From Paenibacillus sp. YPG26 (GTDB lineage Bacteria > Bacillota > Bacilli > Paenibacillales > Paenibacillaceae): 64,000 nucleotides of DNA. Location: the NCBI RefSeq assembly GCF_023704175.1, contig NZ_CP084530.1, positions 111,001 to 175,000 on the forward strand, given 5' to 3'. The number at the start of each line of letters is the position of its first letter. The stretch's first letter is position 1. Below the pieces are notes generated by a model. It worked only from the letters and a program-made list of their open reading frames with translations, searched no databases and had not been told where the DNA came from. A program made the translations under genes and the position numbers. Positions 3,793-19,801 of the stretch are shown one piece after another.

Positions 3793-4926
3793 TTGCTAAG
3801 GATAAGCAGAGTTCAGGAACATTTAATGGTAAAAACAGACGGGTATCAAGCAGCGACCGTAGGGAAGCTCCGCAAAATCCCTGGGCGCTGCTGGATACAG
3901 GCCGAACTCGCCTGGAAGCTCCCGTATTGTGAGGAATCTGTGCGAATGCTGAGCGACATGTTCCCGGTAGAAGAAGTAGATATAGACCCACCGCTGCGCA
4001 AAGAGGAAAGGTTTCGAAGGTATTTTCCGTATGATGCTTCTGTGGCAAAGGAGATACGGGAATCTCAGAAGCTGTTCAGCCAACTGCTGACGCTTAAGGG
4101 GTTAAGTCCACAAACGAAGAAGGCTTACGAAGGGCATGTAAGGCGATTCTGCGAAGATGTGGCCGATGACTTTCTTGAATTGCAGACCAGGCATGTCCGG
4201 GACTATCTTCTTCAGCTCTTTAAGCTGGAGCGTTCTCATTCGTATATCAATCAAGCGATGAGCGCAATGAAGCTTTTTCTAAGTCAAGCTTATAAAAGAC
4301 CTGATCTGATCGTGAACCTTCCCAGACCGAGAAAGGAAAAGAAGCTGCCTCCCGTATTGTCTATGGAGGAGTTGAGGCTGATTTTTGGATCACTAAGCAA
4401 TTTGAAACACAGGATGATTCTTATGCTGACTTATTCAGCTGGGCTCCGTGTCGGGGAGGTTGTACGGCTGCGCCTGAACGATCTCGATCAGCAGCGGATG
4501 CTCGTTCATGTGCGGCAGGGGAAGGGCAAAAAAGACCGTATGACCCTGTTGTCGCACACAACTGGTGAATGTCTAGTACGTTATTTAGAGCGAGAACGGC
4601 CTTATGAGTGGCTCTTCCCAGGCGCTGAGCGGGATCGACCAATTACCGTGAGGAGTGTACAGCGGATATTTGAACGTGCTCTGCAGTCGGCCGGTATCCG
4701 GAAGCATGCAACCGTGCATACCTTAAGACATTCCTTCGCCACCCATCTGCTGGAGGCCGGGACGGATCTTCGCTACATTCAGGAGCTGCTGGGCCATGAG
4801 GACATCAAGACGACTCAGATCTACACCCACGTCTCCTCCAAGGAGGCCCGCCGTATCCAGAGCCCTCTGGATCGGTTGTATCCGGGCGGGATAGGTGACG
4901 CAGATACCCAAGGGAATGGGGATTAG
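3793..4926 (+). CDS. tyrosine recombinase, candidate integrase of the cassette array
   Basis: 377 residues from a TTG with AAGGAG 10 bp upstream; a TAA codon directly precedes it in frame. Residues about 3-57 form an extra N-terminal module with KIPGRCW and a following W-K-L-P, resembling the HARP-like 'iPGRxW...WxxP' pattern seen in some recombinases and in SMARCAL1-type proteins. Residues about 85-170 are a SAM-like core-binding domain. The catalytic domain shows Arg219 (AGLRVGE), Lys246 (GKGKKDR), HTLRH (His309, Arg312), LGH (His335) and nucleophile Tyr344 in QIYTHV. The end, RIQSPLDRL, resembles the SPLDxL tail of integron integrases, but the IntI-specific insertion before HxxR is absent. 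It lies immediately 5' of the attI-like core and array, in the same direction. Its specificity is inferred from position. A XerC/D-like role elsewhere cannot be excluded. Confidence 0.85.
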   Translation: MLRISRVQEHLMVKTDGYQAATVGKLRKIPGRCWIQAELAWKLPYCEESVRMLSDMFPVEEVDIDPPLRKEERFRRYFPYDASVAKEIRESQKLFSQLLTLKGLSPQTKKAYEGHVRRFCEDVADDFLELQTRHVRDYLLQLFKLERSHSYINQAMSAMKLFLSQAYKRPDLIVNLPRPRKEKKLPPVLSMEELRLIFGSLSNLKHRMILMLTYSAGLRVGEVVRLRLNDLDQQRMLVHVRQGKGKKDRMTLLSHTTGECLVRYLERERPYEWLFPGAERDRPITVRSVQRIFERALQSAGIRKHATVHTLRHSFATHLLEAGTDLRYIQELLGHEDIKTTQIYTHVSSKEARRIQSPLDRLYPGGIGDADTQGNGD

Positions 4927-4928
4927 GG

Positions 4929-4960
4929 CGACAGGTGTCGTGGATTTAGTGTTATACGCA
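4929..4960 (+). other. attI-like site: first recombination core of the array
   Basis: GTTATACGC starts at 4951, 25 bp after the recombinase stop codon. The same G/TTATACG-type core ends nearly every attC-like repeat downstream. A small palindrome, CGACA-GG-TGTCG (4929-4940), lies 10 bp to its left and could be a recombinase arm site. The crossover would fall between G4951 and T4952 by analogy with integrons. Confidence 0.6.
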
Positions 4961-5382
4961 ATTGCCCTTGAACCCCTGAAGAAGCCAACCCCATGAAATC
5001 GAATATTCGCTATGAAGCAGAATCATAGAAGAAAGAATCATAGTTTACTTCGTATTTAGAACGGCCGAGATCGGCACTAGGATCGAATTAACTATGATTT
5101 TTTTAGTGCATATGCGGATATCCGGGTGATTTCATGGGGCCGACCGATTCGCTAGACTTTCCTAATCCTTACTTGAATTCCTCAACCACTTTAACGGCGA
5201 AGCGTCCCGAGGAACATCGAAGAAGAAGGTTACTGGAGGTTCGAAGAAAGGGTTGGCAGGTAACCTGCATAGGGACGATCACGCCAACCGAGTGGTTTTG
5301 AAAGGCAGGAATTCAAGTTCAAAGCCAAGAAGGGATTAGGAAAGGCGAATCCGTTGGGGCAAACTCGAAGAAGAGGGCAACT
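4952..5382 (+). ncRNA. cassette 1: highly self-complementary element, possible structured RNA
   Basis: No convincing ORF. The stretch folds on paper into nested stems: 4951-4967 with 5375-5391 (17 bp, one mismatch); CCCCATGAAATC (4989-5000) with 5128-5139; CTATGA (5010-5015) with TCATAG (5023-5028); AATCATAG... (5036-5052) with 5084-5099, enclosing GCCGA/TCGGC; a long arm in which CTTTCCTAATCC (5157-5168) pairs with 5333-5344 and ACTTGAATTCCT (5171-5182) with 5307-5318; and inside it GGTTGGC/GCCAACC (5251-5257, 5283-5289) with GCAGG/CCTGC. Several stems carry non-matching internal loops, more like an RNA than a simple palindrome. I do not recognise a known RNA family. It could instead be a DNA folding element near attI. 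Confidence 0.55.
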
Positions 5383-5543
5383 GCGTATAACACCACATTC
5401 ACGCTGCGGGGCATACGCCCCTTGGTCTGCCGGGGAATCACAAGGAAGTATGTCCAGGCAGACAACTCTGCGAGACTAAGTCTTCGACCCGGCGCTAACG
5501 CGCCTTAAGCCTCTCGGGTTCGCGAATGCAAGAACGTTATACG
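5383..5543 (+). repeat. attC-like repeat 1
   Basis: Left arm GCGTATAAC-ACC-ACATTCACG; right arm CGCGAATGCAAGAACGTTATA, with core GTT at 5536. Internal hairpins are GGGGC-ATAC-GCCCC and GGTCTGCC...GGCAGAC plus a GGCGC-TAA-CGCGCC loop. The arms pair with a spacer between two boxes, as in attC sites. Confidence 0.8.
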
Positions 5544-5577
5544 ACATGGACGTAAAAAATGAAATTAGGTGAATTCG

Positions 5578-5940
5578 ATGAAGATTAAGGACCAGCAAAA
5601 TCTACTTTTTCAAAACTTATCAAATATCAAAAACTATTGGGTAAGCGAATCAACTAGCAGCTTATTACCTGAAGCCGATTTGATATGGTGTAATAACCCT
5701 GAACAAGTTCAAAGTTTAAGTGAAGTTCTAAATAATGATGAACTTCTCAATGCATTTAAAGACTATCAGAAAGAAATTATACAAGGTGTAATACATTCAA
5801 TACTTGTAATGTTTGATGGTGGGGATGCATTAGCTGAGAAGCTTAGAATTGAATTGATAAATGCTGAAACAAAAGAAATATTAAATGAGAATATAGCATT
5901 GCACGAAGATTTTATAGAGTTTTTAATTGACAATGAATGA
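5578..5940 (+). CDS. cassette 2 protein, unknown (small acidic)
   Basis: 120 residues from the ATG at 5578, with AGGTGA upstream; a GTG three codons earlier is an alternative. The protein is acidic and helical, with no membrane segment and the motif VMFDGGDALAEKLRIEL in the middle, a pattern common in small single-domain proteins of the immunity-protein type. Function unknown. It is the only gene of a unit bounded by attC-like repeats 1 and 2. A+T-rich relative to the housekeeping genes at 46-58 kb. Confidence 0.7.
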   Translation: MKIKDQQNLLFQNLSNIKNYWVSESTSSLLPEADLIWCNNPEQVQSLSEVLNNDELLNAFKDYQKEIIQGVIHSILVMFDGGDALAEKLRIELINAETKEILNENIALHEDFIEFLIDNE

Positions 5941-5970: not shown

Positions 5971-6157
5971 GTCATATAACACCGCATTACCGCAGCGGGC
6001 CTAACGGCCCTTGGTCGCTGGGGGAATTTACAGGGAAGCATATTCAGCGACACACCCGCACCACCTAAGCACAGTCGCGCCCATTCGGGAGCCAGGACAC
6101 CTGGCTCCATGCTACCTTTAAGGTTGTGGGGCGTCGGGAATGCAACAACGTTATAAG
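5971..6157 (+). repeat. attC-like repeat 2
   Basis: Left arm ATATAACACCGCATTACCG; right arm GGGAATGCAACAACGTTATA, core GTT at 6150. The flank CGTCCACGTCATATAAC is complementary to the start of the same cassette (GTTATACGACATGGACG at 5536). The interior has several short G+C-rich hairpins. Confidence 0.8.
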
Positions 6158-6217
6158 AAATTGGGGCAAACCCGATAGAAATCAAATTCAAATAAACACT
6201 AACAAGAGGTGGTACCC

Positions 6218-6694
6218 TTGTCACATGTCAGAGTTAGGTGTAGCGGTTTAATAATTAAAGATAATTCAATTCTTTTAGTTGAGTATGATGACAATGGAAT
6301 TCATTACAATCTACCAGGCGGAGGATTAGAACGTGGAGAAACAATAGTTGATGGTGTTACTCGAGAAGTCTATGAGGAAACTCGCTCGGAAGTCGAAGTC
6401 GGTGAATTAGCTCTAATTTATGAGTTTGCGCCCCATAAACAGTCAGGCGACTATAGTGTAAATGAAAGCCATGGATTACATCTTATATTTGAATGCAAAT
6501 TGATAAATAGTTCAATCCCCAAGCTTCCTCCGCAACCAGATCCTCACCAAGTCGCAGTTAAGTGGATTCCAGTGGATAAGTTAGAATCGATACTTTTAAT
6601 ACCGAATATCTCGGAACAAATAAAAGAATATGTAAACAATAGAAGAACTATAGCTCTGATTGAAGATCATCAATTAGAAAGATTGAAGTTATAA
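6218..6694 (+). CDS. cassette 3: NUDIX hydrolase
   Basis: About 158 residues from a TTG with AGAGGTGG 5 bp upstream; an earlier GTG at 6209 would overlap that ribosome site. The NUDIX box is complete (GGGLERGETIVDG followed by REVYEETRSEV), giving the Glu residues that bind divalent metal for nucleoside-diphosphate-linked substrates. The region before it forms the usual beta-strand entry (ILLVEYDDNGIHYNLPGGG). Substrate cannot be deduced. Single gene between attC-like repeats 2 and 3. Confidence 0.85.
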   Translation: MSHVRVRCSGLIIKDNSILLVEYDDNGIHYNLPGGGLERGETIVDGVTREVYEETRSEVEVGELALIYEFAPHKQSGDYSVNESHGLHLIFECKLINSSIPKLPPQPDPHQVAVKWIPVDKLESILLIPNISEQIKEYVNNRRTIALIEDHQLERLKL

Positions 6695-6935: not shown

Positions 6936-8120
6936 ATGAAAGGAATAATAAAGATAATAGAAGCAGTTCGATCAGAGAGTCCACTTTTGGAATTTTTTAG
7001 AGCAGGAATAAAACCGGAAGAAATAAAAGAACAAATTATTAGTGATTTCGATCAGTATTTTAGGAATAAAGATAACCTTTCCAAATATTCTATGACTTAT
7101 TTAGTCTCAGATTGGATTCTTTATAATAAATATCGTGATAATAGTTGGTTCAAACAAAAGTTATTAGAGTCATTGAATATGTATAGAGATGCTTCTAAAC
7201 GTGATGCATTTGCATGTCATGATATTTTTAAGCAATTAATTGATGACCAAATTGAGACAGGGAACCGATTTTGGAGTTTTGTTTTTACAGAGACTAATAA
7301 AAAAGATTTAGAAATATATGAATTTACTCAAATGACAATGAATGATATCGGTCGAATAGTCGAAGGATTGTTTAAGACATTGTTATTAGAATATATCTCT
7401 ATGTACAGATTATCAAAAGGTAAGAAGGTTGTTATAAGTGATATCAAAAAGTTGGATCTTGGAATAATAAATAATGAACTCATTCAAACCTCTGCTTTTC
7501 TCGATTTATTCTCAATTAGATCGTTAAAGCTATCTGATTGGAGAAACATTGCTTATCACCATAATTACTCAATTGAAAGCGATAAAATTAAATGTACTTA
7601 TGGTCCAAAAGATAATCGAAACACTATATTGCTAGAGAAAGATGAATTATGGGCTGTTTTGCTTGAAATATCAAGAATACTTGATTTGCTTAACCTCACC
7701 CATAAATTCTATTTTTATGATAATGACACTGAAATACTTCAGGGGTTTGATCCTGACTCTATTAGGGGAGAAGCAAGAACGGAAATTTGGTTTTTAACGT
7801 TCGCATCTGCGTTAGTTGCTCAAGGATTTGACATTATTTCATTTGAAACTAGCAAAGAAATTACAAAATTGATAGTTAGAGAAACTATTATTGATTCTGA
7901 TAAAAGAACTAGAGCGATACATTCTTCACAATTTACATACAATTTATGGTACTATACATCCTCGGTTAAATTGGAAGTTGAATATAGGGATTTAGAAAAC
8001 GTCCCATACTTAAGAGCATCTACAACAAATGAAATATGTGAAAAGATAGGAAGTAAAGAGAAGCCTTTCACTTATCTTGCTGAGTTTATTAACTTAGAGA
8101 TTTTAGAGAATGATGCTTGA
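6936..8120 (+). CDS. cassette 4 protein with a HEPN-like motif, unknown
   Basis: 394 residues from an ATG with AGAGAAGG upstream. The protein is largely helical, with no signal or membrane segment. Residues about 125-260 look like a HEPN-type helical bundle: helix MNDIGRIVEGLFKTLLLEYI, then SDWRNIAYHHNYS, giving Arg203-x4-His208, the pattern of HEPN ribonucleases. The C-terminal 130 residues are a mixed alpha/beta domain I do not recognise. A defence or stress RNase role is possible but unproven. It is the longest product in the array, and its own downstream repeat is truncated. Confidence 0.65.
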   Translation: MKGIIKIIEAVRSESPLLEFFRAGIKPEEIKEQIISDFDQYFRNKDNLSKYSMTYLVSDWILYNKYRDNSWFKQKLLESLNMYRDASKRDAFACHDIFKQLIDDQIETGNRFWSFVFTETNKKDLEIYEFTQMTMNDIGRIVEGLFKTLLLEYISMYRLSKGKKVVISDIKKLDLGIINNELIQTSAFLDLFSIRSLKLSDWRNIAYHHNYSIESDKIKCTYGPKDNRNTILLEKDELWAVLLEISRILDLLNLTHKFYFYDNDTEILQGFDPDSIRGEARTEIWFLTFASALVAQGFDIISFETSKEITKLIVRETIIDSDKRTRAIHSSQFTYNLWYYTSSVKLEVEYRDLENVPYLRASTTNEICEKIGSKEKPFTYLAEFINLEILENDA

Positions 8121-8137: not shown

Positions 8138-8164
8138 CATTGATGAATACAAAACCGTTAGGTG
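8138..8164 (+). repeat. truncated attC-like remnant (repeat 4, right arm only)
   Basis: TGATGAATACAAAACCGTTAG keeps the right-arm pattern GAATACAA + ACCGTTA (core GTT at 8157), but the left arm and loops are missing. It marks the junction of cassettes 4 and 5. The cassette 5 start GTTAGGTGAAACCTTGG matches the complement of CCAAGGCATCCCATAAC at that cassette's own end (8699-8715). Confidence 0.6.
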
Positions 8165-8218: not shown

Positions 8219-8689
8219 ATGGATAAAGACGCATATTTTAAAAACCTTGAAGAAATCATAACTGACCCAATATTTATCGCCTCTTCAAAGGAAGATATTG
8301 ATGAAGATATCAGTAACAATATGTGGTGCATTTCATTAGAACAAGAATTGGCAAGTCAAATAAATATTAATGATTTTGTGAACTTCCTTAGTTCGGTAAT
8401 AGATAATCGACAAAACCAAATAAGAGCATTAAATGGACAGAATGGAATGACTTTTTATCTTTGGTTTGACTGGATGGCAAGCCAATTGAGGTTTAATTTA
8501 ATTTCTAATATTTATGATAAGCTACCTTTTTGGTGCGAACTTGAATTACTGGATAGAATGGAACCGATAATTGAGGAATTCTTGGCATATCCATTCTTGA
8601 ATGGGCTTCCAAGTGGAGGCTATTCTGATGGATCAGAAGAGAAACCGTATGTATTAAAAGTCTATATAAAGATATTGAATGTGGAGTAA
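8219..8689 (+). CDS. cassette 5 protein, unknown
   Basis: 156 residues from an ATG preceded by AAGGAGC. Acidic and helical, with aromatic patches (TFYLWFDWMASQLRFNL) and a Gly-rich turn SGGYSDGSEEKP near the C-terminus. Its size and composition resemble immunity-type proteins of contact systems, but no family is identified and no toxin gene lies beside it. Single gene between the truncated repeat 4 and repeat 5. Confidence 0.65.
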   Translation: MDKDAYFKNLEEIITDPIFIASSKEDIDEDISNNMWCISLEQELASQININDFVNFLSSVIDNRQNQIRALNGQNGMTFYLWFDWMASQLRFNLISNIYDKLPFWCELELLDRMEPIIEEFLAYPFLNGLPSGGYSDGSEEKPYVLKVYIKILNVE

Positions 8690-8698: not shown

Positions 8699-8854
8699 CC
8701 AAGGCATCCCATAACACCGTATTTACGCTGCAGGGCTATCGCCCCTCGGTTCCCGGATGTATAATAATGGAATAAGCTCAGACAACAAACGCCCCAGCCG
8801 AAGATAAGAGCTATCTAAGGCTGGGGCGTTTTGTGAATACAAGAACGATAATGA
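8699..8854 (+). repeat. attC-like repeat 5 with a terminator-like hairpin
   Basis: Left arm CCCATAACACCGTATTTACG; right arm TTTTGTGAATACAAGAACG with a mutated core GATA at 8847. Inside is a perfect 12-bp stem AACGCCCCAGCC / GGCTGGGGCGTT (8788-8799, 8819-8830). Related hairpins occur in repeats 15 and 17. Confidence 0.8.
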
Positions 8855-8888: not shown

Positions 8889-9281
8889 ATGATAAATAGT
8901 CTAGTTGAACTAAGGAATAACGATGAGTGTATTCAAGGAAGCTTTATTTATGCATTACATGAAGAAGATTGTTTTGATGAAAGATTGTATTGGAAATTCT
9001 ATAACTCTGTTTTGGAATTATCTATTTATTTTGGGGACAAGGAGCACGATCCCCAGATCACTAGAATGATAATTCATACACACAACTACTTTTTGAAGTC
9101 GTTGATATGGAGTTATTCGCCTAATGATGCAAGTCGTATTAAGAACTTACCGCATGACAAGTTACATCTTTATGTTGAGAGACTTTGTGTAAGGGTGGAG
9201 TATGGCTATTTTGAAAGACAGATTGTTGACGAAGAAGGTCTTAATGAAGATCTTATGAACCCGTATTACGAACTTAATTGA
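8889..9281 (+). CDS. cassette 6 protein, unknown
   Basis: 130 residues from an ATG with TTTGGAG 8 bp upstream. Acidic and helical, with no signal peptide. Motifs such as LYWKFYNSVLELSIYFG and MIIHTHNYFLKSLIWSYSP suggest a compact helical domain similar in size to immunity-type proteins. No family recognised. Single gene between repeats 5 and 6. Confidence 0.65.
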   Translation: MINSLVELRNNDECIQGSFIYALHEEDCFDERLYWKFYNSVLELSIYFGDKEHDPQITRMIIHTHNYFLKSLIWSYSPNDASRIKNLPHDKLHLYVERLCVRVEYGYFERQIVDEEGLNEDLMNPYYELN

Positions 9282-9307: not shown

Positions 9308-9409
9308 CAGATAACCCCCGCACTCACACTGCGGGCCGCTGTCACATCTCTTGGTCCGCCCCATTGGGGCTTAAGGTTCTCGGCTCCGCGAACACCCAGA
9401 AAGTTACCC
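9308..9409 (+). repeat. attC-like repeat 6
   Basis: Left arm AGATAACCCCCGCACTCACAC; right arm CGCGAACACCCAGAAAGTTA with core GTT at 9403. Shorter than repeats 1-3. Hairpin CGCCCC-ATT-GGGGC lies inside. The arms are diverged but keep the AAC...GTT polarity. Confidence 0.7.
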
Positions 9410-9459: not shown

Positions 9460-10014
9460 ATGAAGATAGAAGATATATTTAGTGACCTACCTACCCTGGA
9501 AACCGAGCGAACAATTCTCAGGAAGATTGATCTTGAGGATATTCAAGATATTTATGCTTACTGTAGTGATGAAGAAGTATCAAAGTACACAACGTGGGAA
9601 GTTCACAGGAAAATAGAAGATACTAAAGGATTTGTTAATTATGTTCTAGGCAAGTACACCAACTGTCAACTCAGTCCCTGGGGAATCCAAGATAAGAATA
9701 CAGGTAAATTAATAGGCACTTGCGACTATGTGAATTGGGATATTGATAATTATAAGGCTGAAATTGGGTATGCATTGTCTAGGAAACATTGGGGACAGGG
9801 GTATATGACAGAATGCGTAAAAAAATTAATTGAATTTGGATTTGTAAGCATGAATCTGAATCGCATTGAAGCTAAATGTATTCTGGACAATATTGGTTCA
9901 TCCAGAGTTATGGAGAAATCAGGGATGAGACTAGAAGGGATTTTAAAAGAGTACATTTTTAATAAAGGAAATTTTCATGACATAAAAATATACTCCATAA
10001 TTAGGGAAAAGTAA
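9460..10014 (+). CDS. cassette 7: GNAT N-acetyltransferase, RimJ/RimL type
   Basis: 184 residues from an ATG with GGGAGG 7 bp upstream. It begins with the typical LETERTILRKIDLEDIQDIYAYCSDEEVSKYTTW. The acetyl-CoA loop follows as ALSRKHWGQGYMTE (R/Q-x-x-G-x-G/A type), then an AKCILDNIGSSRVMEKSGM element. The family acetylates protein N-termini or small amines; the substrate here is unknown. Single gene between repeats 6 and 7. Confidence 0.85.
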   Translation: MKIEDIFSDLPTLETERTILRKIDLEDIQDIYAYCSDEEVSKYTTWEVHRKIEDTKGFVNYVLGKYTNCQLSPWGIQDKNTGKLIGTCDYVNWDIDNYKAEIGYALSRKHWGQGYMTECVKKLIEFGFVSMNLNRIEAKCILDNIGSSRVMEKSGMRLEGILKEYIFNKGNFHDIKIYSIIREK

Positions 10015-10046: not shown

Positions 10047-10173
10047 TCGATAACATCGCATTCCCCAGAAGGCCTAACGGCACCTTCGCGTGATAAATTA
10101 CCGGTGAAGCGTATTTGAGCAGCTCACCACCTAACCATAGTACCAACTAGTCGGGAGTGCAGCTACGTTATGT
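10047..10173 (+). repeat. attC-like repeat 7
   Basis: Left arm CGATAACATCGCATTCC; right arm AGTGCAGCTACGTTATG with core GTT at 10167. Diverged, with internal hairpins around GAAGGCCTAACGGCACCTTC. It closes cassette 7. Confidence 0.65.
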
Positions 10174-10226
10174 GTAATTTGCAGATCCTTTTCTTTAATG
10201 CTTTTCCTAAGAAAGGTAGACATCGA

Positions 10227-10757
10227 ATGTTATCCTTATTACTAATTGTAGTTATTCTAATTATTCTTATGATTAAAAGACCTATATCGATTAAATCTTC
10301 TAAAATATTTTTATATTTGTCTAAATTATCATGGTATCAGAATCCATTCCTATGTGGTCTATTTGTTTCACTCGTGAATTTAATTCTATTTATATCTGTA
10401 ATCGGGTTATCTCTTTTATCAGTATTACTAAGTCTTGGATTTGTATGGATGCTTTTTCCTATTTTGGGTGTCGTAATAAATATATGGTTCTGGATACAGG
10501 TAGGAATGACATGGGGAGACCAAAATGAGGGAAGAATAGTAACTGCGTTAATTGGAGGTGCATTTTATTGGGTCGTATTTTTATTTTTTATTTATAGGTA
10601 TGTTACGCTAACTCCCCAATTTGAAGGTGACGATACTTTTATGACGGCTATTGGCTTATTTATGGGGATACTTATTTCTTTTATAGCTGGGGTATTATGC
10701 ATTTGGGCAATATTATATTGTTCAAGATTAATCAATAAAGACAGTAACTATGCCTAA
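10227..10757 (+). CDS. cassette 8: polytopic membrane protein, unknown
   Basis: 176 residues from the ATG at 10227, which has GAAAGG upstream; the ORF is open from 10170 but without a ribosome site. About five hydrophobic segments: residues 1-15, 40-70, 75-97, 110-130 and 142-165. Loops are short, one containing TWGDQNEGR. No transporter or enzyme motif is seen. Strongly A+T-rich. Single gene between repeats 7 and 8; its last codons overlap the left arm of repeat 8. Confidence 0.65.
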   Translation: MLSLLLIVVILIILMIKRPISIKSSKIFLYLSKLSWYQNPFLCGLFVSLVNLILFISVIGLSLLSVLLSLGFVWMLFPILGVVINIWFWIQVGMTWGDQNEGRIVTALIGGAFYWVVFLFFIYRYVTLTPQFEGDDTFMTAIGLFMGILISFIAGVLCIWAILYCSRLINKDSNYA

Positions 10758-13123: not shown

Positions 13124-14128
13124 TTGGTGCTCCTTTCGTTGTTTGAATTTAGTAGAATCAATACTAATGCTTTTGATGATCTTAATGAATACGTTATGAA
13201 GATTAAGAAGATTATATCTGCAACAGCAGCTTCAACCTATATTATCCATCATGATCGGATCGTGAATGAATGGTATTCCGGACTTCATGATACTAGCACA
13301 AACAGTCGGTTGGTTGATGAGAAATCCCAATTTAACATTGCTTCTATAAGAAAGACTTATTTGGGTTTTGCGGTAAGTCTAGCAATTTATGAAGGAAGAA
13401 TAAAAAGTCTAGATGACCCTGTTAGTGCTTATTGGAATGATATTGATAGCACGGTAACTATTCGCCATTTGTTAACACATACTCATGGTTTGGACAGCCA
13501 AAACAAATGTTTGTTTCCTCCGGGAACTTCGTGGAGCTATAACAATTCCGGTGTGAGTCTGCTAATAAAAATCATTCAAAAGTTATATGGAATACCATTA
13601 TCTGAATTATTAGAAGAACGGGTATTTTCACCTTGTGGATTTACGAGCACAGGTTGGAGAAAGAAAGAATCTGAACGGTTGGTTTGGATAAATGAAGAAT
13701 ATGTTGATGATCAAGGCAACGAGCCGAACTTATTTGTAAGTACGAAGGAACTGGCTTACTGGGGTTATTTACATATGAATAAAGGTTCCTTTAATGGTAA
13801 GCAAATCATTCCTCAAGGTGTATTTGAGCAAGCAACTACAATCATCAGTCCCCAAAGCTTAACGAAAGAATTGCCTCGTAGTGGATTTTTCTGGTCTGTA
13901 CAGGATGAACCGCGCTTAAAGGCAGAATTAGGTGATAAGTTGCCGAGAGGCTCGTATCAGTCTTTAGGTATAACTGGCTGTGTATGTCTTGTTATCCCTA
14001 CATATAAAACTGTTGCAATCAGAATGTATAATCAGATTGAACCGAATCCCAATAATTACGATTATATAACTGATATAAAAACATTTGGCAACCTATTATG
14101 CAGATGTATAGAAAAGTTTCGCATGTGA
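13124..14128 (+). CDS. cassette 13: serine beta-lactamase-fold hydrolase (class C / esterase-like)
   Basis: 334 residues from a GTG at 13124, which has no strong ribosome site, so the start is uncertain. No signal peptide is evident, unlike secreted beta-lactamases. Ser74-I-R-Lys77 is the nucleophile motif (SIRK), Tyr139-Asn-Asn141 the YxN motif, and HLLTHTHGL the usual following element. This family includes class C beta-lactamases, DD-peptidases and esterases; a cytoplasmic esterase or peptidase is the safer reading. Single gene between repeats 12 and 13. Confidence 0.8.
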   Translation: MVLLSLFEFSRINTNAFDDLNEYVMKIKKIISATAASTYIIHHDRIVNEWYSGLHDTSTNSRLVDEKSQFNIASIRKTYLGFAVSLAIYEGRIKSLDDPVSAYWNDIDSTVTIRHLLTHTHGLDSQNKCLFPPGTSWSYNNSGVSLLIKIIQKLYGIPLSELLEERVFSPCGFTSTGWRKKESERLVWINEEYVDDQGNEPNLFVSTKELAYWGYLHMNKGSFNGKQIIPQGVFEQATTIISPQSLTKELPRSGFFWSVQDEPRLKAELGDKLPRGSYQSLGITGCVCLVIPTYKTVAIRMYNQIEPNPNNYDYITDIKTFGNLLCRCIEKFRM

Positions 14129-14150: not shown

Positions 14151-14284
14151 GCTAACGATGCATTCACGCTGCGGGGCTTACGCCCTTTGGTCGTCCGAGT
14201 ATAATTACCGACTAACCGCATCGCTTCCTGCTCCTGATGGAGCCTTAAGACGGGGGACATCGGGAGTAGAAGAGCATTATATGC
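14151..14284 (+). repeat. attC-like repeat 13
   Basis: Left arm GCTAACGATGCATTCACG; right end GAAGAGCATTATATGCAAT with core ATT instead of GTT at 14276. GCGGGGCTTACGCCC hairpin inside. The reading frame upstream of the next gene runs through it without a start site. Confidence 0.7.
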
Positions 14285-14328: not shown

Positions 14329-14979
14329 TTGATTAAAGCAGTAGTCTTCGATCTCGATGGAACACTATTGGACCGAGATACCTCTCTAAAACAATTTGTT
14401 TTGAATCAACACGATCGAATAGAAGCTTTACACTCAGTCGATAAAGTTGAATATGCAGCTCGATTTATTGAGTTGGACAGCAAAGGCTATATCTGGAAGG
14501 ACAAGGTGTACTTTTCTCTTATTAATGAATATAGAATTAGTGGAGTTTCTGCGGATGATCTGTTAGCAGATTATATAAAGAATTTTAGGTATCATTGTAC
14601 TCCGTTTCCAAATCTAAAGCAGTTGTTAGACTTTATTACTTCCAAAGAGGTTAGGATAGCTATGATTACGAATGGGTTTGGTGATTTTCAACTAGGCAAT
14701 GTTGACGCTTTAGGGATCAGTGACTATTTTGAGTTCATCATGGTATCGGAGCTTGAGGGAATCAGGAAACCGGATGAAGAGATTTTTAGGAGAGCGCTTA
14801 GCAGGCTAGGTATTAAAGCTTCTGAAGCCATCTATGTAGGAGATCATCCTGATAACGATGTAAAAGCAAGTATGCGTGCCGGGATGAAGGGAATCTGGAA
14901 GTCAGATTCGTATTATAAGGACGATTTTAATCGTGATGGGGTTATATACGATTTACTGGACTTAAAGAGTCTCTTGTAG
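14329..14979 (+). CDS. cassette 14: HAD-superfamily hydrolase
   Basis: 216 residues from a TTG at 14329, with GAGGAGTGG just upstream; the frame is open from 14098 but that part crosses attC-like repeat 13. Motif I is VVFDLDGTLLDRD (nucleophile Asp), motif II MITNGF, motif III the Lys in EGIRKPD, and motif IV YVGDHPDNDVKA. The helical cap is type C1. These are phosphatases of small phosphorylated metabolites. Single gene between repeats 13 and 14. Confidence 0.85.
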   Translation: MIKAVVFDLDGTLLDRDTSLKQFVLNQHDRIEALHSVDKVEYAARFIELDSKGYIWKDKVYFSLINEYRISGVSADDLLADYIKNFRYHCTPFPNLKQLLDFITSKEVRIAMITNGFGDFQLGNVDALGISDYFEFIMVSELEGIRKPDEEIFRRALSRLGIKASEAIYVGDHPDNDVKASMRAGMKGIWKSDSYYKDDFNRDGVIYDLLDLKSLL

Positions 14980-15002: not shown

Positions 15003-15152
15003 ATCATATAAGGCCGCATTCACGCATCGGGCTGCAGTTACGTCTCTTAGTCCGCATACAGGAATTTCAAAGAGGTTGAACCAGACCCTGCACTGGTTAA
15101 ACACACTGTGGCCGTTCTCTTCGGCCCTTGAAACTGCAGCAACATTATACGA
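15003..15152 (+). repeat. attC-like repeat 14
   Basis: Left arm ATCATATAAGGCCGCATTCACG; right arm CTGCAGCAACATTATACGAC with core ATT at 15144. Flank GGGGTGCATCATATAA is complementary to its own cassette start (TTATATGCAATACCCC at 14277). Contains ACCCTGCACTGGTTAA. Confidence 0.75.
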
Positions 15153-15224: not shown

Positions 15225-15515
15225 ATGTCAATTCATTCATTGATTGAATCGAATCATAATACAATACTTAATATAGCCAAATCGAATGGGGCAAAGAAAA
15301 TTAGCTTATTCGGTTCTGCTGCTCGAGGAGAAGATCATGCAGAGAGTGATATTGACTTTTTAATTGAATTTGAGGAGAATAGGTCTCTTTTTGACTTAAT
15401 AAGGCTTAAGAATCAACTAGAGGATCTTTTAAATAAACCAGTAGACATCGTAACGGAGAATTCAGTCCATTGGAAGATGAAGGATCATATTTTAAGCGAG
15501 GCCATACAATTATGA
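15225..15515 (+). CDS. mntA: cassette 15a: MntA-type minimal nucleotidyltransferase antitoxin
   Basis: 96 residues from an ATG with TTGGAGGTGG upstream. LFGSAARGE (Gly30-Ser31) and ESDIDFLIEF (Asp42, Asp44) are the catalytic motifs of the minimal nucleotidyltransferase fold. In the HepT/MntA systems MntA adds AMP to HepT and thereby neutralises it. The stop codon overlaps the next ATG (ATGA), typical of a translationally coupled toxin-antitoxin pair. Both lie in one cassette between repeats 14 and 15. Confidence 0.85.
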   Translation: MSIHSLIESNHNTILNIAKSNGAKKISLFGSAARGEDHAESDIDFLIEFEENRSLFDLIRLKNQLEDLLNKPVDIVTENSVHWKMKDHILSEAIQL

Positions 15516-15841
15516 GGGATGATAAAGTCTATCTAACCCATGTGCTAGAATGCATTCAGTATATATTTGAATATACACAAACGGGGAAAGAAGAGTTTTT
15601 TAAACAAAGAATAATTCAGGACGCAGTAGTCAGAAATCTTGAGATTATTGGAGAAGCAACAAAGAATATTTCAAAAGAATTTAGAAGTCAAAATCCAGAC
15701 ATCCCGTGGCGTGAAATGGCAGGCTTACGGGATGTTTTAATTCATGACTATTTTGGCGTAGATAACCATATTGTATGGAGCGTTGTAAAGAACGAATTGC
15801 CTGGATTACTAAAACAAATTGAAGAGCTTTTGAAAGCATAA
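15512..15841 (+). CDS. hepT: cassette 15b: HepT-like HEPN toxin (DUF86)
   Basis: 109 residues from the ATG at 15512 overlapping the mntA stop. The HEPN ribonuclease motif RDVLIHDY gives Arg73-x4-His78-x-Tyr80, the exact RX4HXY signature where the partner antitoxin modifies Tyr. Upstream helices IIQDAVVRNLEIIGEATKNIS match the DUF86 family. Predicted role: RNase toxin held in check by MntA. Two-gene cassettes of this kind can stabilise large cassette arrays. Confidence 0.9.
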   Translation: MRDDKVYLTHVLECIQYIFEYTQTGKEEFFKQRIIQDAVVRNLEIIGEATKNISKEFRSQNPDIPWREMAGLRDVLIHDYFGVDNHIVWSVVKNELPGLLKQIEELLKA

Positions 15842-15857: not shown

Positions 15858-15912
15858 ACATCGTGCATCGCGGTCGCCCTTCGTGCTTAAGGGGGGAGTA
15901 GCGTAAACACAA
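15858..15912 (+). repeat. degenerate attC-like remnant (15, left)
   Basis: TACATCGTGCATCGCGGTCG...GCTTAAGGGGGGAGTAG then CGTAAACACAAAA resembles a worn short attC-like copy like repeat 10, directly abutting the next one. Tandem remnants suggest a lost cassette. Confidence 0.45.
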
Positions 15913-16108
15913 AAAACCGTATTCACGCTGCAGGCTATCACCTCTCGATTACGAAGTGTATAATCATGGAAGAAGCTCAGACAACAAACGACCCAGCCTA
16001 AGATAAGAGCTATCTAAGGCTGGGTCGTTTGTTGATGGCATTTTACAAGAAATCGGTGAGAGAAAGTTAAGATCCACTTGGACATTGTGAATTTGATAAC
16101 GTTATACG
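15913..16108 (+). repeat. attC-like repeat 15 with a terminator-like hairpin
   Basis: Left arm AAAACCGTATTCACGCTGC; right end CATTGTGAATTTGATAACGTTATA, core GTT at 16101. It carries ACGACCCAGCC...GGCTGGGTCGT, a hairpin variant of that in repeat 5, with matching GATAAGAGCT in the loop. Confidence 0.7.
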
Positions 16109-16142: not shown

Positions 16143-16568
16143 ATGAACATAAAATTCTATGATAATCTCTTGTCCGCAGATGATTATTTATTTATCCATC
16201 AAGCAATGAACTATGATCTTGAACCCAGGGAGCAGATAGAGCAAGCATTATCAAGAAGTATACGTACAGTCACAGCTAAAGACGGCGATAAAATAGTTGG
16301 AATGGGCCGGCTAGTGGGTGATGGTCTTATGTACTGTTATATTCAAGATGTTCGTGTCTTGCCGTACTATCAAAATAAAGGTATAGGAAAGGCCATAATT
16401 AACAGAATGATAGAGTATGCTCGCCAAAATGGATTGCCTAACACAGTTATAACTATTGGTTTATCATCAGCAAAAGGGGCTGAGCGCTTTTATGAAAACT
16501 TGGGTTTTATCAAACAACCATGCCATGATATGGGCCATGGGATGTATATAGATATGGAAATTGATTAG
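16143..16568 (+). CDS. cassette 16: GNAT N-acetyltransferase
   Basis: 141 residues from an ATG with GGAGGAAAG upstream. It has a standard GNAT fold: IVGMGRLVGDG, YIQDVRVLPYYQNKGIGKAI (acetyl-CoA loop Q-N-K-G-I-G-K), and a C-terminal ERFYENLGF motif. Substrate unknown. Single gene between repeat 15 and the remnant repeat 16. Confidence 0.85.
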   Translation: MNIKFYDNLLSADDYLFIHQAMNYDLEPREQIEQALSRSIRTVTAKDGDKIVGMGRLVGDGLMYCYIQDVRVLPYYQNKGIGKAIINRMIEYARQNGLPNTVITIGLSSAKGAERFYENLGFIKQPCHDMGHGMYIDMEID

Positions 16569-16657: not shown

Positions 16658-17131
16658 GTGGGAATGTCAGATTATTATAAGAAACTTCGAGAGAAGATTG
16701 GAAATCAGTTGCTTTTTATGCCAGCAGTAGCAGGTATCATAAGAAATGAACAAGGTGAAATTCTTTTTGGTAGGAAGCACAAAGAAGAAAACTGGGGCTT
16801 AATCGCCGGGGCTATCGAGATTGGAGAAACTCCTGCCCAAGCTATGATAAGAGAAGCATGGGAGGAGACTGGACTCAGAATTGAACCTGAAAGAATCATT
16901 GGGGTATATGGGGGAGAAGAGAGGCGTTTTACATATAGGAATGGTCACCAAGTTGAGTACTTAACAATCGTGTTTGATTGCAAAATCATGGAAGGGCGGC
17001 TAAACCCAAATAATGAAGAGATGAAGGATCTAAAATTCTTTTTTGAAGACCAAATACCATATATTTCAAACAAATACCCGAAAAACATATTTAGTTCAGA
17101 GCAAGGAGATAGAGCACATTTCGAAAGATGA
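16658..17131 (+). CDS. cassette 17: NUDIX hydrolase
   Basis: 157 residues from a GTG with AAAAGGGGAG 7 bp upstream; an ATG two codons on is an alternative. The NUDIX box is intact: GAIEIGETPAQAM then REAWEETGLRI. An N-terminal strand FMPAVAGIIRNEQGEILFGR precedes it. Members hydrolyse nucleoside diphosphate derivatives. The order and spacing resemble ADP-ribose or related pyrophosphatases, but the substrate is not deducible. Single gene between remnant 16 and repeat 17. Confidence 0.85.
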   Translation: MGMSDYYKKLREKIGNQLLFMPAVAGIIRNEQGEILFGRKHKEENWGLIAGAIEIGETPAQAMIREAWEETGLRIEPERIIGVYGGEERRFTYRNGHQVEYLTIVFDCKIMEGRLNPNNEEMKDLKFFFEDQIPYISNKYPKNIFSSEQGDRAHFER

Positions 17132-17147: not shown

Positions 17148-17298
17148 TACATTATATAGCCCTATACTCAAATCTAAAGGCTATCGTCCCTCGATTGCGA
17201 AGTGTATAATCATGGAAGAAGCTCAGATAACAAACGACCCAGCCTAAGATAAGAGCTTTCTAAGGCTGGGTCGTTTCGTGAATGCAAAGACGTTATAA
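17148..17298 (+). repeat. attC-like repeat 17 with a terminator-like hairpin
   Basis: Right arm CGTGAATGCAAAGACGTTATA, core GTT at 17292; the left arm is diverged (TTACATTATATAGCCC). Inside, ACGACCCAGCC...GGCTGGGTCGT and GTATAATCATGGAAGAAGCTC are nearly identical to repeat 15. Confidence 0.7.
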
Positions 17299-17365: not shown

Positions 17366-18253
17366 ATGAAACCAGTACTTAGAACATATGACCATACTTA
17401 TTATGACATTGTTTGTGATTTTCTAATCGAATTGTCCAAAGAAAATAGTAAATATATCAATTGGAACTGGGCACGTTGGGAATGGATGATGTATCATCCT
17501 GAGTTTAATAATGACTTGATTGATAATATAGGATTATGGTTCTGTAATGATGAATTGGTTGGTATGGCAACCTTTGACCACTACTTTGGAGAAGCATGTA
17601 TTGCTGTTAAGAGTGGTCATATAGAACTTGAGAAAGAAGCATTAGAATATGCTCTTTCTACTTTTAGCGACGAGAATGGTCTAGGCATTGCAATAAATGA
17701 TGCTGATATACATTCTATTGAGTTATTACGTAACTATGGCTTTGTAAAAAAGGAGGGAAATATCGAAAATATACTTGAACTTAATCTTGAGGAAATCAGC
17801 TTCGACTATACTCTTCCACCAGAAATTATAATAAAAAGTCTAAATCCAGAGACGGATTTGCATAAACATCACAGAACTTTATGGAAAGGATTCGATAACG
17901 GCGGTGATGCGGATCTTCCCTGTGATGAAATCACCATGAATAAGCAGAAAAGAATGCTGTCAGCACCACATTTAAATACATACCTGCACACGGTTGCAGA
18001 AAATGAAGAAGGTGAGTATGTTGCCTACTGTGGATGCTGGTACAATGCGAAAACGGATTATGCTTATGTGGAACCCATCTGTACAATTCCTTCCTATCGA
18101 GGAAAGGGACTGGGTAAAGCGGTGCTTTTGGAAGCACTGAAGAGATGCAATGATCTAGGTGCTAAAAAGACATATGTTATTTCTGACTCCGCTTTTTATA
18201 AGGCATTAGGCTTTAATCAATATTCACGGTATACATTCTACTGGCATCAATAG
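17366..18253 (+). CDS. cassette 18: tandem GNAT acetyltransferase
   Basis: 295 residues from an ATG with GAGGGAG upstream. Two GNAT-like halves: residues about 1-140 with a degenerate acetyl-CoA site (LLRNYGF at its end), and residues about 160-295 with a clear site, YVEPICTIPSYRGKGLGKAV, and closing SDSAFYKALGF. Only the second half is likely catalytic. Two-domain GNATs of this size are common in Firmicutes. Substrate unknown. Single gene between repeats 17 and 18. Confidence 0.85.
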   Translation: MKPVLRTYDHTYYDIVCDFLIELSKENSKYINWNWARWEWMMYHPEFNNDLIDNIGLWFCNDELVGMATFDHYFGEACIAVKSGHIELEKEALEYALSTFSDENGLGIAINDADIHSIELLRNYGFVKKEGNIENILELNLEEISFDYTLPPEIIIKSLNPETDLHKHHRTLWKGFDNGGDADLPCDEITMNKQKRMLSAPHLNTYLHTVAENEEGEYVAYCGCWYNAKTDYAYVEPICTIPSYRGKGLGKAVLLEALKRCNDLGAKKTYVISDSAFYKALGFNQYSRYTFYWHQ

Positions 18254-18290: not shown

Positions 18291-18357
18291 CATCTAATAA
18301 CACTGCCTTCTCGCATCGGGCCCGGTGAAGGTTTCGTTGAATGCAAGAACGCTAACT
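18291..18357 (+). repeat. attC-like repeat 18 (short form)
   Basis: Left arm ATCTAATAACACTGCCTTCTCG; right arm TCGTTGAATGCAAGAACGCTAA, core GCT at 18351. Contains the CGCATCGGGCCCGGTGAAGG segment seen in other copies. About 65 bp. Confidence 0.7.
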
Positions 18358-18395
18358 GCGATTGCTGCAAAAAAAATTCTATGTGAGGTGTATCA

Positions 18396-18989
18396 ATGAA
18401 GTCAGTCTCTCCGATGGATGCTTACCTTCAGGCATCCGAGCACATTGATTACTATGATGATCAAATTCAAGCTCTTATTCGCTCATTTAATCAAAATAAT
18501 GAAATCGAAAAAGTTACAGCAGTATTTCATTTTGTACGGGACAAGATTCATCATTCATATGACATTGATTCCACGAACGTAACTAGGACAGCATCGGAAG
18601 TTCTACAACAAGGACATGGGATCTGTTATGCTAAATCGCATTTGTTTGCGGCTCTTTTGCGGGGAATGGGCATACCCTCCGGGATTTGTTATCAGAGACT
18701 GACACTTTATGATCAACCGGAAGACGGCCACTGCATACATGCGTTGAACACTGTATATCTAAGGGATCTGAACAAATGGATAAGACTTGATGCAAGGGGT
18801 AACAAGAAAGGGATAGATGCTCAGTTTTCTATTGATGAAGAGAAATTAGCTTTTCCCATCAGGGAGGAATGTGGCGAGAGAGACTATTGGATCAACTATG
18901 CCGAACCCCATCCGGAAATTATCAAGACACTTGCAACCTATTCAGACTGTATTGAGATGTACCAACAAGGATTACCGGATCAATTGTAA
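18396..18989 (+). CDS. cassette 19: transglutaminase-like cysteine protease-fold protein
   Basis: 197 residues from an ATG with GTGAGG upstream. The catalytic triad of the transglutaminase-like fold is visible: Cys in GHGICYAKSHLFAALLRGMGIPS, His in DGHCIHALNTVYL, and Asp in WIRLDARGN. Proteins of this short cytosolic type act as peptidases or amidases; the substrate is unknown. Single gene between repeats 18 and 19. Confidence 0.85.
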   Translation: MKSVSPMDAYLQASEHIDYYDDQIQALIRSFNQNNEIEKVTAVFHFVRDKIHHSYDIDSTNVTRTASEVLQQGHGICYAKSHLFAALLRGMGIPSGICYQRLTLYDQPEDGHCIHALNTVYLRDLNKWIRLDARGNKKGIDAQFSIDEEKLAFPIREECGERDYWINYAEPHPEIIKTLATYSDCIEMYQQGLPDQL

Positions 18990-19009
18990 GAGCAGTTCAG
19001 GAAAGGCTG

Positions 19010-19151
19010 CAGCATCTGATAAAAAAATATGTGCACGCCTGGGTGGATCAGCTGCCTCGCCCTGCCCCACCTAACCGGGAGTCTTAGATAAGGTTATCTG
19101 TGCTTCCCTCACCCTTGAGGGGGAAGATTCGTGAATGCAAGAATTTTGCTG
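19010..19151 (+). repeat. attC-like repeat 19 (diverged, last recognisable copy)
   Basis: Right arm GATTCGTGAATGCAAGAA then TTTTGCTG with a lost GTT core near 19144; left side CATCTGATAAAA. Flank GGCTGCAGCATCTGATAA is complementary to its own cassette start (GCGATTGCTGC at 18358). CCCTTGAGGG hairpin inside. Confidence 0.6.
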
Positions 19152-19183
19152 AAAGAACCGGAATCTAAAAGGGGCTGCTGTAA

Positions 19184-19801
19184 ATGAACAATATGTTCCT
19201 ACAACACGTTACTAATTATTTAATAAATAAATATAAGTGTCATACCCTTATTTTGTATGGATCCTATGTTACTGGAGACTTTACTGAGGATAGTGACTTA
19301 GACGTAGTTGGTTTTACAGATAAAGTTAGTAGTCCAAATGATAACCATGTGCTGAACAACGTTCAACTAGATGCATGGATATACAATACGAATGAAATGA
19401 ACGATCCAGAGAAATTCTTGCACATTAGAGATGGATATATACTTTTGGATGAAAGAGACTCGGGGAAGCTGCTGCTTGAAAGAATTGATCATGTATACAA
19501 CAAAGGCCCAGTAAAAACTGATTTGCTTGAAATTGAATTTTTGAAGAAATGGCTGATCAAGATGCAAGACCGCTCATTAAAAGGTGGTATTGAAGGGGAT
19601 TTTAGATATCACTGGTTGCTAAATGACAGCCTGGAGATTTACTTTAAAATAATAAATAAATGGTATCTAGGCCCTAAGAAGTCACTTCAATGGCTTAAAA
19701 CAGAGGATCCAAAGGCGTATGAGCTGTTCTCTAGGGCATTAAATAGAAGCGCAAAAAATAAAGATGTTGAGAATCTGATAAAGCATATCACAGAGAGCTG
19801 A
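19184..19801 (+). CDS. nucleotidyltransferase-domain protein
   Basis: 205 residues from an ATG with AAAGGGG upstream. LILYGSYVTGDFTEDSDLDVVGF has the GS motif (Gly26-Ser27) and DxD (Asp38, Asp40) of the polymerase-beta-like nucleotidyltransferases. The C-terminal half is a helical domain (YHWLLNDSLEIYFKIINKWYLG) as in aminoglycoside-type or kanamycin-like transferases. A small-molecule AMP-transferase role is plausible. It follows repeat 19 but no attC-like repeat follows it, so it is either the last cassette or a fixed gene. Confidence 0.8.
   Translation: MNNMFLQHVTNYLINKYKCHTLILYGSYVTGDFTEDSDLDVVGFTDKVSSPNDNHVLNNVQLDAWIYNTNEMNDPEKFLHIRDGYILLDERDSGKLLLERIDHVYNKGPVKTDLLEIEFLKKWLIKMQDRSLKGGIEGDFRYHWLLNDSLEIYFKIINKWYLGPKKSLQWLKTEDPKAYELFSRALNRSAKNKDVENLIKHITES

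What the first reader, a model, noticed from the sequence alone, without database searches (positions are those of the whole stretch)
3793..19200. Integron-like cassette array in a Firmicute
A tyrosine recombinase gene is followed by about 20 short plus-strand units, mostly one gene each, separated by related 70-190 bp imperfect inverted repeats ending in a GTT core (AACGTTATA). The units carry unrelated small functions typical of integron cassettes (GNAT, NUDIX, nucleotidyltransferase, toxin-antitoxin, immunity-like unknowns). They are visibly more A+T-rich than the housekeeping genes nearby. Integrons are best known in Proteobacteria and a few other phyla; I know of no well-described array in Paenibacillus-type bacteria. 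The layout is also non-classical: the array lies 3' of the integrase and in the same direction.
Basis: partly seen in the sequence, partly recalled or inferred. Interest (0 to 1): 0.95.

Follow-up and report, generated by a model that had tools for sequence, protein, structure and literature searches.

The report
Gene-capture array lacking integron's signature domain
A bacterium of the phylum Bacillota (likely Paenibacillus family) carries a recombinase gene followed by about 18 short gene cassettes, most ending in a related repeat; related species hold quite different cassettes between nearly identical flanking DNA, and because the enzyme lacks the domain held to be essential for integrons, this is likely a sister lineage of integrons that would capture genes through folded single-stranded DNA.

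Summary
Repeat-end profiles built from other genomes' rows find 11 R'' and 8 R' ends (E<0.01) at 5370-18321, all on the + strand, none elsewhere in the 64 kb. The recombinase family is found in 57 of 295 family-level and 22 of 398 phylum-level genomes. All 32 fetched family-level loci with at least 1375 bp downstream carry such arrays 3' of the gene. There is an attI-like site. Cassette heads and tails are complementary within a cassette. Near-identical cassettes sit in unrelated surroundings with breaks at ACG|TTA. Four sister species share recombinase, attI and right flank but differ over about 5-9 kb of cassettes. A 96-nt class of sites folds as a cloverleaf with strong compensatory change. 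The enzyme lacks the IntI-specific I2 domain (66-70 versus 107-112 residues), yet its clade is sister to IntI and shares the SPxD tail; it carries a HARP-like N-terminal domain. So it works like an integron but fails IntI membership. I read it as an overlooked I2-less sister system, which makes 'attC before I2?' testable. Recombination activity itself is untested.

The parts
3793..4926 (+). Tyrosine recombinase, 377 aa (TTG start as listed): HARP-like N-terminal domain, core-binding domain, catalytic domain without the IntI I2 insert, SPLD near the C-terminus
   Evidence: integrase_gron 205.6 bits (cut-off 265), XerA_Arch 211.7 (cut-off 220)
3793..4000 (+). HARP-like N-terminal domain (about the first 65-70 residues), absent from the two IntI proteins aligned
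   Evidence: each weak, same answer
4922..4954 (+). attI-like simple site; crossover inferred at the G|TTA of 4951|4952
   Evidence: head 16/16 complementary to the first tail; a comparable head 89-152 nt after the matched recombinase end in 28 of 32 other loci
4952..5536 (+). First cassette; no + strand ORF of 70 aa or more within it
5388..5539 (+). attC-like site S1
   Evidence: both ends E<1e-8
5569..5940 (+). Cassette gene, unknown function
5977..6153 (+). attC-like site S2
6209..6694 (+). Cassette gene, NUDIX; its cassette is 83% identical to one in L094
6739..6893 (+). attC-like site S3
6936..8120 (+). Cassette gene, unknown function (394 aa)
8144..8160 (+). S4, R' end only (R'' end not recognised)
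   Evidence: R' profile E 0.038
8219..8689 (+). Cassette gene, unknown function
8712..8847 (+). attC-like site S5; its terminal stem is 83% identical to that of S15
8889..9281 (+). Cassette gene, unknown function
9315..9408 (+). Degenerate site S6
   Evidence: R'' profile E 0.17
9460..10014 (+). Cassette gene, GNAT
10052..10170 (+). Degenerate site S7
   Evidence: E 0.25 and 0.17
10170..10757 (+). Cassette gene, unknown function
10755..10816 (+). Short attC-like site S8
   Evidence: E 2.4e-4 and 9.7e-4
11038..11071 (+). S9, R' end
   Evidence: R' E 8e-8; R'' not recognised
11112..11681 (+). Cassette gene, DUF4269
11750..11774 (+). Degenerate R' end S10
   Evidence: E 0.96
11841..12227 (+). Cassette gene, HTH_17 match below the curated cut-off
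12269..12410 (+). attC-like site S11
   Evidence: R'' E 2.7e-9; R' end not found by the profile, read by eye
12512..12862 (+). Cassette gene, glyoxalase
12931..13095 (+). attC-like site S12
   Evidence: E 6.7e-6 and 2.5e-8
13124..14128 (+). Cassette gene, beta-lactamase fold
14154..14279 (+). attC-like site S13
   Evidence: R'' E 2.5e-7, R' E 1.1
14329..14979 (+). Cassette gene, HAD hydrolase
15009..15147 (+). attC-like site S14
   Evidence: R'' E 1e-4, R' E 0.37
15225..15841 (+). Cassette gene pair: nucleotidyltransferase and HepT-like (toxin-antitoxin type)
15908..16104 (+). attC-like site S15
   Evidence: R'' E 0.002, R' E 2.6
16143..16568 (+). Cassette gene, GNAT (no clear site follows it)
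16658..17131 (+). Cassette gene, NUDIX
17178..17295 (+). Site S17 (terminal stem, 91% identical to that of S15, and R' end; R'' not recognised)
   Evidence: R' E 1e-7; family D3
17366..18253 (+). Cassette gene, GNAT
18298..18354 (+). Short attC-like site S18
   Evidence: E 3.8e-5 and 0.028
18396..18989 (+). Cassette gene, transglutaminase-like
19126..19149 (+). Degenerate R' end S19, last recognisable site
   Evidence: E 0.028
19184..23095 (+). Further small genes (nucleotidyltransferase, HAD, others not scanned) without recognisable sites: possible decayed distal array

Best explanation
This is an array of gene cassettes beside a tyrosine recombinase that lacks the IntI-specific I2 domain, and it likely works as an integron: the enzyme is predicted to insert circular cassettes at an attI-like site just 3' of its own gene and to shuffle them through sites that would fold as single-stranded hairpins. 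Shown by comparison: the array is linked to this recombinase family; cassettes are discrete units bounded at ACG|TTA; the platform stays while cassettes turn over in sister species; the 96-nt class of sites and the L stem in general are under selection to fold; the enzyme's clade is sister to IntI. Inferred: this recombinase is the catalyst; the folded strand is the bottom strand; cassettes enter preferentially at attI (older, more decayed ones lie distally); excision gives circles whose head and tail pair to complete the R stem. Speculative: the HARP-like N-terminal domain reads the folded DNA in place of I2. In the window itself the distal sites are decayed, so much of this copy may no longer move.
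For: Window sites found with other genomes' rows. Linkage: 32 of 40 fetched loci have sites, the 8 without end within 1 kb of the matched gene; the 314 same-strand elements all lie downstream, and opposite-strand ends are 4 of 670 at E<0.01. Head/tail complementarity in 280 cassettes 0.85-0.89 at the three variable positions against 0.33-0.48 shuffled and 0.41-0.52 within a site. attI-like sites. 61 full-length cassette pairs at 80% identity or more, 17 between loci; of the 61 I inspected 11 (7 between loci), identity changing at ACG|TTA. Sister-species turnover. Folding: unbiased covariation; cloverleaf 135 double-change cells against 46.3 (sd 5.3), 0 of 500 shuffles. Phylogeny: IntI + family + 2 plasmid rows 99/97, IntI 100/99, family + 2 rows 94/92. 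SPxD tail 32 of 34 family, 2 of 2, 12 of 15 IntI, 0 of 10 others. Covariance model: of 18 genomes counted as lacking the recombinase 9 have no site, 6 have 1-5, 3 have 12-17, and two of those three hold a broken or partial copy beside the sites; 0 of 18 distant Bacillota genomes.
Against: No recombination was observed; everything is comparative. Other genomes' profile rows were gathered with a window-seeded profile. All 18 recombinase genomes that matched the covariance model (7-46 sites each) had supplied sites to it, so that match is by construction. The bottom-strand case is modest: fold energy lower in 63 of 73; non-Watson-Crick cells favour bottom wobble 62 to 33 in the cloverleaf set, but only 131 to 108 in the head/tail stem, and the 282 to 84 in the L stem rests largely on one column. 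IntI1 and VchIntIA need extrahelical bases for attC x attC recombination (PMC2727003, passages), which these stems lack, so either another reader exists or the reaction differs. Head/tail match against rank is not significant pooled (rho -0.10, p 0.10), though negative in 20 of 21 loci. No clear promoter excess. No LexA box with one mismatch or fewer in 41 upstream regions; a looser pattern hit 1 of 41. Of 15 phylum-level loci with 2.6 kb or more downstream, 3 (L135, L140, L145) gave no clear array. The cloverleaf model barely sees the window's own sites (best 15.1 bits, E 0.16): they are of other lengths.
Confidence: 0.8

Rival explanations
1. A true integron lineage whose integrase once had I2 and lost it; the system descends from ordinary integrons.
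For: Family is sister to IntI and shares the SPxD tail. A survey notes that the insert is not fully conserved within its 'integron-like' subgroup (PMC8138268, passages).
Against: All 34 family and both plasmid rows lack I2, as do the outgroups, so one gain on the IntI branch needs fewer steps than gain plus loss. The family is a clade beside IntI, not inside it; but only 15 IntI rows, mostly close to class 1 or from virus contigs, were in the tree.
Confidence: 0.2
2. Ordinary double-stranded Xer/dif-like recombination between the simple L'-R' ends; the long inverted repeats fold for another reason or not at all.
For: The R' end reads like a dif-type half-site pair by eye (dif layout recalled; consensus); direct-repeat R' ends alone could exchange cassettes.
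Against: Compensatory changes in the L stem and in all three arms and the unbiased L-stem covariation show selection on the folded form.
Confidence: 0.15
3. The repeats are structured RNA elements (for example attenuators) spread between genes, unrelated to recombination.
For: Compensatory folding is also expected of RNA; the sites lie between genes on one strand.
Against: No Rfam family at the gathering score in the arrays of window, L076, L073, L083 and only sub-threshold matches in L091. Cassette boundaries fall inside the element and head/tail pairing is within the cassette, not within the element, which RNA function does not explain.
Confidence: 0.03

Closest known systems
Integrons with IntI and attC/attI (class 1-3 and sedentary chromosomal)
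   Same: Tyrosine recombinase + attI + array of one-gene cassettes with palindromic AAC...GTT sites; crossover at the G|TT core; cassette ends complementary (three class 1 cassettes checked show 9, 12 and 13 nt); branched terminal structures are known in large attC (PMC2727003, passages).
   Different: No I2 domain; no bulged base in the 8-bp L stem of the 96-nt class; HARP-like N-terminal domain; gene upstream of and codirectional with the array; head motif GTTANNNGAAAT rather than GTTRRRY; separate clade; scattered through Bacillota, where TIGR02249 above cut-off was found in 1 of 249 genomes.
Reverse-orientation integrons of Spirochaetota (PMC9668308 passages; PMC3607928 search listing only)
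   Same: Integrase codirectional with cassettes (the paper says 'reverse orientation').
   Different: Those are IntI, which that paper defines by the additional domain.
'Integron-like' subgroup of simple tyrosine recombinases (PMC8138268, passages)
   Different: In the passages I read, no cassette arrays or folded sites are linked to insert-less members.
OTH-22-1 motif, attC-like structured DNA (PMC8632094, passages)
   Same: Predicted single-stranded attC variant with RYYYAAC end in several phyla.
   Different: No recombinase or cassette evidence in the passages read; I could not compare its consensus with these sites.
XerCD/dif and pdif modules (recalled)
   Same: Related catalytic domain; half-site resemblance by eye.
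   Different: Short double-stranded sites and host Xer enzymes; here a dedicated enzyme (other Xer-type hits of 27-39% identity lie elsewhere in the genome) and 57-197 nt sites in the window.

Membership tests
Integron | Tyrosine recombinase gene next to the array | tested here: met
   R219, K244, H309, R312, H335, Y344 among the invariant columns (residue roles recalled)
Integron | IntI-specific additional (I2) domain | tested here: not met
   66-70 residues between GKGxKDR and HTLRHSF in 34 of 34 family rows, 107-112 in 15 of 15 IntI rows
Integron | Recombinase falls inside the IntI clade | tested here: not met
   sister clade; IntI 100/99, family+2 94/92
Integron | attI site adjacent to the recombinase gene | tested here: met
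   conserved simple site at the start of the first cassette; identity of sister species ends 3-11 nt past its G
Integron | attC sites with paired outer R and L boxes and a variable terminal structure | tested here: met
Integron | GTTRRRY / RYYYAAC core consensus | tested here: not met
   GTTA 97-99% but the next base is T in 60% of 223 rows
Integron | Extrahelical bases in the L stem | tested here: not met
   ungapped 8-bp stem, 96.7% of cells paired, in the 73 sites of the 96-nt class; one diagonal in the wider set. A conserved unpaired CTG follows the stem and may be a landmark.
Integron | Bottom strand is the folded substrate | tested here: inconclusive
   lean that way
Integron | Cassettes move as units with a fixed crossover | tested here: met
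   (by comparison, not observed)
Integron | Cassette promoter Pc | tested here: inconclusive
   7 promoter-like matches against 4.6 (sd 2.0) expected in 3400-6300
Integron | Recombination catalysed by this enzyme | not testable with these tools
   needs an assay
XerCD/dif modules | short double-stranded dif-type site as the whole target (recalled definition) | tested here: not met
   attC-like sites with conserved fold

The most novel reading that the evidence does not exclude
A living pre-I2 branch of the integrons: cassette capture through folded single-stranded attC arose before IntI gained I2, and this branch, spread through Bacillota with kin in Bacteroidota, reads the folded sites with a HARP-like domain and has no extrahelical bases. 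It would be the missing intermediate that the integron field has asked for.
Probability: 0.5. Interest if true: 0.96.

Novelty: new variant of a known kind. Interest (0 to 1): 0.92.

Why it matters
The I2 domain is described as necessary for cassette capture and not found in any other protein, with a stated lack of intermediates (PMC7790495, passages), and its origin as a chicken-and-egg paradox (PMC4792948, passage). A large I2-less sister family with foldable sites and cassette turnover between species makes that order of events testable, would help explain why surveys report very few integrons in Firmicutes (PMC9024848, passages), and opens a largely unexplored pool of cassette genes.

Tried and rejected
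LexA/SOS control: no box with one mismatch or fewer in 41 upstream regions, one looser hit. Claim that long head/tail matching is unique to this system: dropped, class 1 cassettes show it too. Pooled rank-decay correlation: not significant; only the within-locus sign is used. Structured RNA: no Rfam match in the arrays searched. True IntI in Bacillota as the explanation: 1 of 249 genomes. PADLOC on 8 cassette proteins: the nucleotidyltransferase matched PDC-S09 strongly and PDC-M05A weakly, one other protein had a marginal match, six none. Full-model Foldseek could not separate XerA from IntI (pTM 0.51). Tree rows L005, L004 and L047 (a 50-aa fragment and very long branches) were dropped; the fragment L005 fell inside the family. 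Genome names of G handles are not given, so 'Paenibacillus family' is inferred from named protein hits.
Full report
Observation. The window holds a 377-aa tyrosine recombinase (3793-4926) and, 3' of it on the same strand, small A+T-rich genes separated by related imperfect inverted repeats. I rebuilt profiles of the two repeat ends from other genomes' rows only (231 R'' and 209 R'; 11 and 14 window rows removed) and searched the whole 64 kb: 11 R'' and 8 R' hits at E<0.01, all on the + strand between 5370 and 18321, none outside. The rows had been gathered with a window-seeded profile, so this is not fully independent. Head/tail pairs of 13 of 16 or more number 14 in 4900-20000 against 1 in each of two equal control stretches, both scoring 13. 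Four of the 14 score above 13; they start at 4951, 5536, 6150 and 8157, that is at the attI-like site and at sites S1, S2 and S4. The other closures in this genome are decayed: 2-12 of 16 where they could be scored.

Family and linkage. At E<=1e-80 the recombinase has a match in 57 of 295 genomes of its family, 11 of 19 genera; at E<=1e-70 in 22 of 398 genomes of its phylum, 19 of 267 genera; both counts include this genome. I fetched 40 of the 57 family-level places outside this genome. Sites were found in 32 of 40; the other 8 end 155-974 bp after the matched gene, while every locus with sites has at least 1375 bp. Elements were assembled from same-strand hits only; all 314 in these loci lie 3' of the gene. 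Opposite-strand ends were 2 of 339 R'' and 2 of 331 R' hits at E<0.01; one weak R' hit lay upstream of the gene in L112 (E 0.013). Of 20 phylum-level loci, 12 had at least one head/tail pair at 15 or 16 of 16 (L134, L136, L137, L139, L143, L144, L146-L149, L151, L152); L135 had one 15/16 pair off the head pattern; L140 and L145 had none at 15; five have under 900 bp downstream. Profiles gave nothing at E<1 in the 35 distant-recombinase loci that could be oriented (3 of 38 could not) nor in three plasmid loci.

Covariance model. A model of the 96-nt sites matched 18 of 18 chosen genomes with the recombinase (7-46 sites each); all 18 had supplied sites to the model, so this shows abundance, not independent presence. 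Of 18 genomes counted as lacking the enzyme at 1e-80, 9 had no site, 6 had 1-5 and 3 had 12-17. Of these three, G193 has a copy with one stop and G038 a 105-residue fragment, both beside sites, and G152 none at E<=1e-50. It matched 0 of 18 distant Bacillota genomes.

Cassettes are closed units. In 280 cassettes the head after G|TT and the tail before R'' AAC of the same cassette are complementary over about 17 nt: 0.85-0.89 at the three variable positions, 0.69-0.85 at positions 11-16, against 0.33-0.48 and 0.27-0.49 after shuffling; within one site the values are near the shuffled ones. Position 10 is nearly always A opposite C, which on the bottom strand is a T.G wobble. Yardstick, with site positions from my own crude search: three class 1 cassettes show 9, 12 and 13 paired nt from the core, three Pseudoalteromonas candidates 7, 4 and 5, so long closure matching is shared with some integrons. 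Using the first tail as bait, the matching head lies after a conserved simple site 3' of the recombinase: among 33 sequences 28 heads lie 89-152 nt after the matched gene end, the window at 28, three at 261-1311, and L103 gave only 11/16. This is the attI-like site.

Movement. Among 284 cassettes there are 61 full-length pairs at 80% identity or more, 17 between loci. I inspected 11 of the 61, 7 of them between loci. In all 11 the stretch from 300 to 61 nt left of the cassette is unrelated (57-93 of 240 identical, ungapped) and in ten also the stretch to its right (54-76 of 240); L080/L090 share the right-hand neighbour (230 of 240). Because ACG and TTA are conserved, the crossover is bracketed to that core, not fixed to a base. 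L080, L087, L090 and L102 are 94-97% identical through the recombinase to 3-11 nt past the attI G, then differ over about 4.7-8.8 kb, apart from one cassette shared by L090 and L102 and a last cassette shared by L080, L087 and L090, then are 92-98% identical on the right. In 20 of 21 sequences with six or more cassettes the head/tail match declines away from attI; the pooled correlation is not significant.

Folding. In 322 distinct elements, mutual information over all 43 x 46 column pairs puts an L-stem pair first and others of the same anti-diagonal 4th, 7th and 11th; several non-complementary pairs rank as high, as relatedness would give. Of 88 sites of 94-108 nt, 73 are exactly 96 nt. They fold as a cloverleaf, an 8-bp L stem with three arms. 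Pairs form in 95.7% of cells; 135 cells and 14 pairs carry changes on both sides, against 46.3 (sd 5.3) and 7.7 (sd 1.2), none of 500 shuffles as high; sliding the partner destroys the signal. Further pair types are less striking (32 against 29.5, 21 of 500 as high). Bottom-strand folding is favoured but not proved: lower energy in 63 of 73; wobble on the bottom strand 62 against 33 (16 pairs lean that way, 4 the other), but 131 against 108 in the head/tail stem. The L stem has no bulge. The window's own sites are of other lengths and score poorly with this model.

The enzyme. NCBIfam scores are below every curated cut-off listed, best XerA_Arch 211.7 of 220 and integrase_gron 205.6 of 265 in two stretches. 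Between GKGxKDR and HTLRHSF it has the Xer-like length: 66-70 residues in 34 family rows, 65-66 in two plasmid relatives (one Chryseobacterium, one Acinetobacter), 107-112 in 15 IntI rows. In a 58-row tree, with columns filled in under 30% of rows left out (15 IntI rows alone cannot reach that), IntI is one clade (100/99), the family 87/92, family plus the two relatives 94/92, and all these against seven Xer-type or other rows 99/97. Long outgroup branches and a narrow IntI sample limit this. The SPxD tail is in 32 of 34, 2 of 2, 12 of 15 and 0 of 10 rows. The N-terminal domain is HARP-like by three weak but agreeing lines: Pfam HARP in 9 of 17 members at E<=1, best 3e-5, below its cut-off and not in the window protein itself; best PDB profile match 4o66 at E 0.034; best Foldseek match 4o66, the SMARCAL1 HARP 'substrate recognition domain', probability 0.77, E 0.28. 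HARP is described as five strands packed on two helices and important for fork reversal (PMC4666394, one passage); the full-length model has five strands and two helices before residue 65, the shorter domain model fewer strands.

Known work. IntegronFinder 2.0 reports one complete integron in Firmicutes, Limnochorda pilosa, and a few CALIN (PMC9024848, passages). Two papers use the additional domain to define IntI (PMC9668308, PMC2426708, passages). Nine paper searches on integrons gave, in the rows listed, no description of I2-less cassette arrays in Bacillota; not all matching papers were listed, the library holds open-licence papers only, and preprints are not held. Nearest prior hints are PMC8138268 and PMC8632094.

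Verdict. It works like an integron; by the I2 definition and by clade it is not a member. I call it a new variant, likely a sister lineage. Whether it is ancestral in type or derived is the open point.

Noticed in passing
L153:12984-20810: Chryseobacterium plasmid: a side-clade recombinase followed by four copies of a long palindromic repeat between small, mostly codirectional genes, three of the four R'-like ends reading GTTANNNG: a likely Bacteroidota counterpart.
   Followed up: partly
L154:8001-8708: A recombinase of the same side clade lies directly before tet(X3) between two ISVsa3 copies on an Acinetobacter plasmid; possibly a remnant of such a platform. Described only.
   Followed up: no
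G140:C1:3486522-3505402: A second long series of cloverleaf sites far from the recombinase-linked array in the same genome, CALIN-like unless a diverged enzyme lies nearby.
   Followed up: no
window 8733-8841, 15932-16040, 17178-17286: Two of these terminal stems are 83% and 91% identical to the third; by eye a similar stem ends cassettes in L093, L094, L097 and L099, so terminal structures themselves may spread.
   Followed up: partly
L096:4749-11136: Run of similar 605-634 nt cassettes (84-99% identical pairwise in the listed pairs), with one gap: a local amplification.
   Followed up: no
L182:5698-11918: Caballeronia plasmid: a recombinase 47% identical to the catalytic part of the window's stands before three further integrase genes in a row.
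   Followed up: no
window 60581-60848: Bacterial large SRP RNA on the + strand.
   Followed up: no
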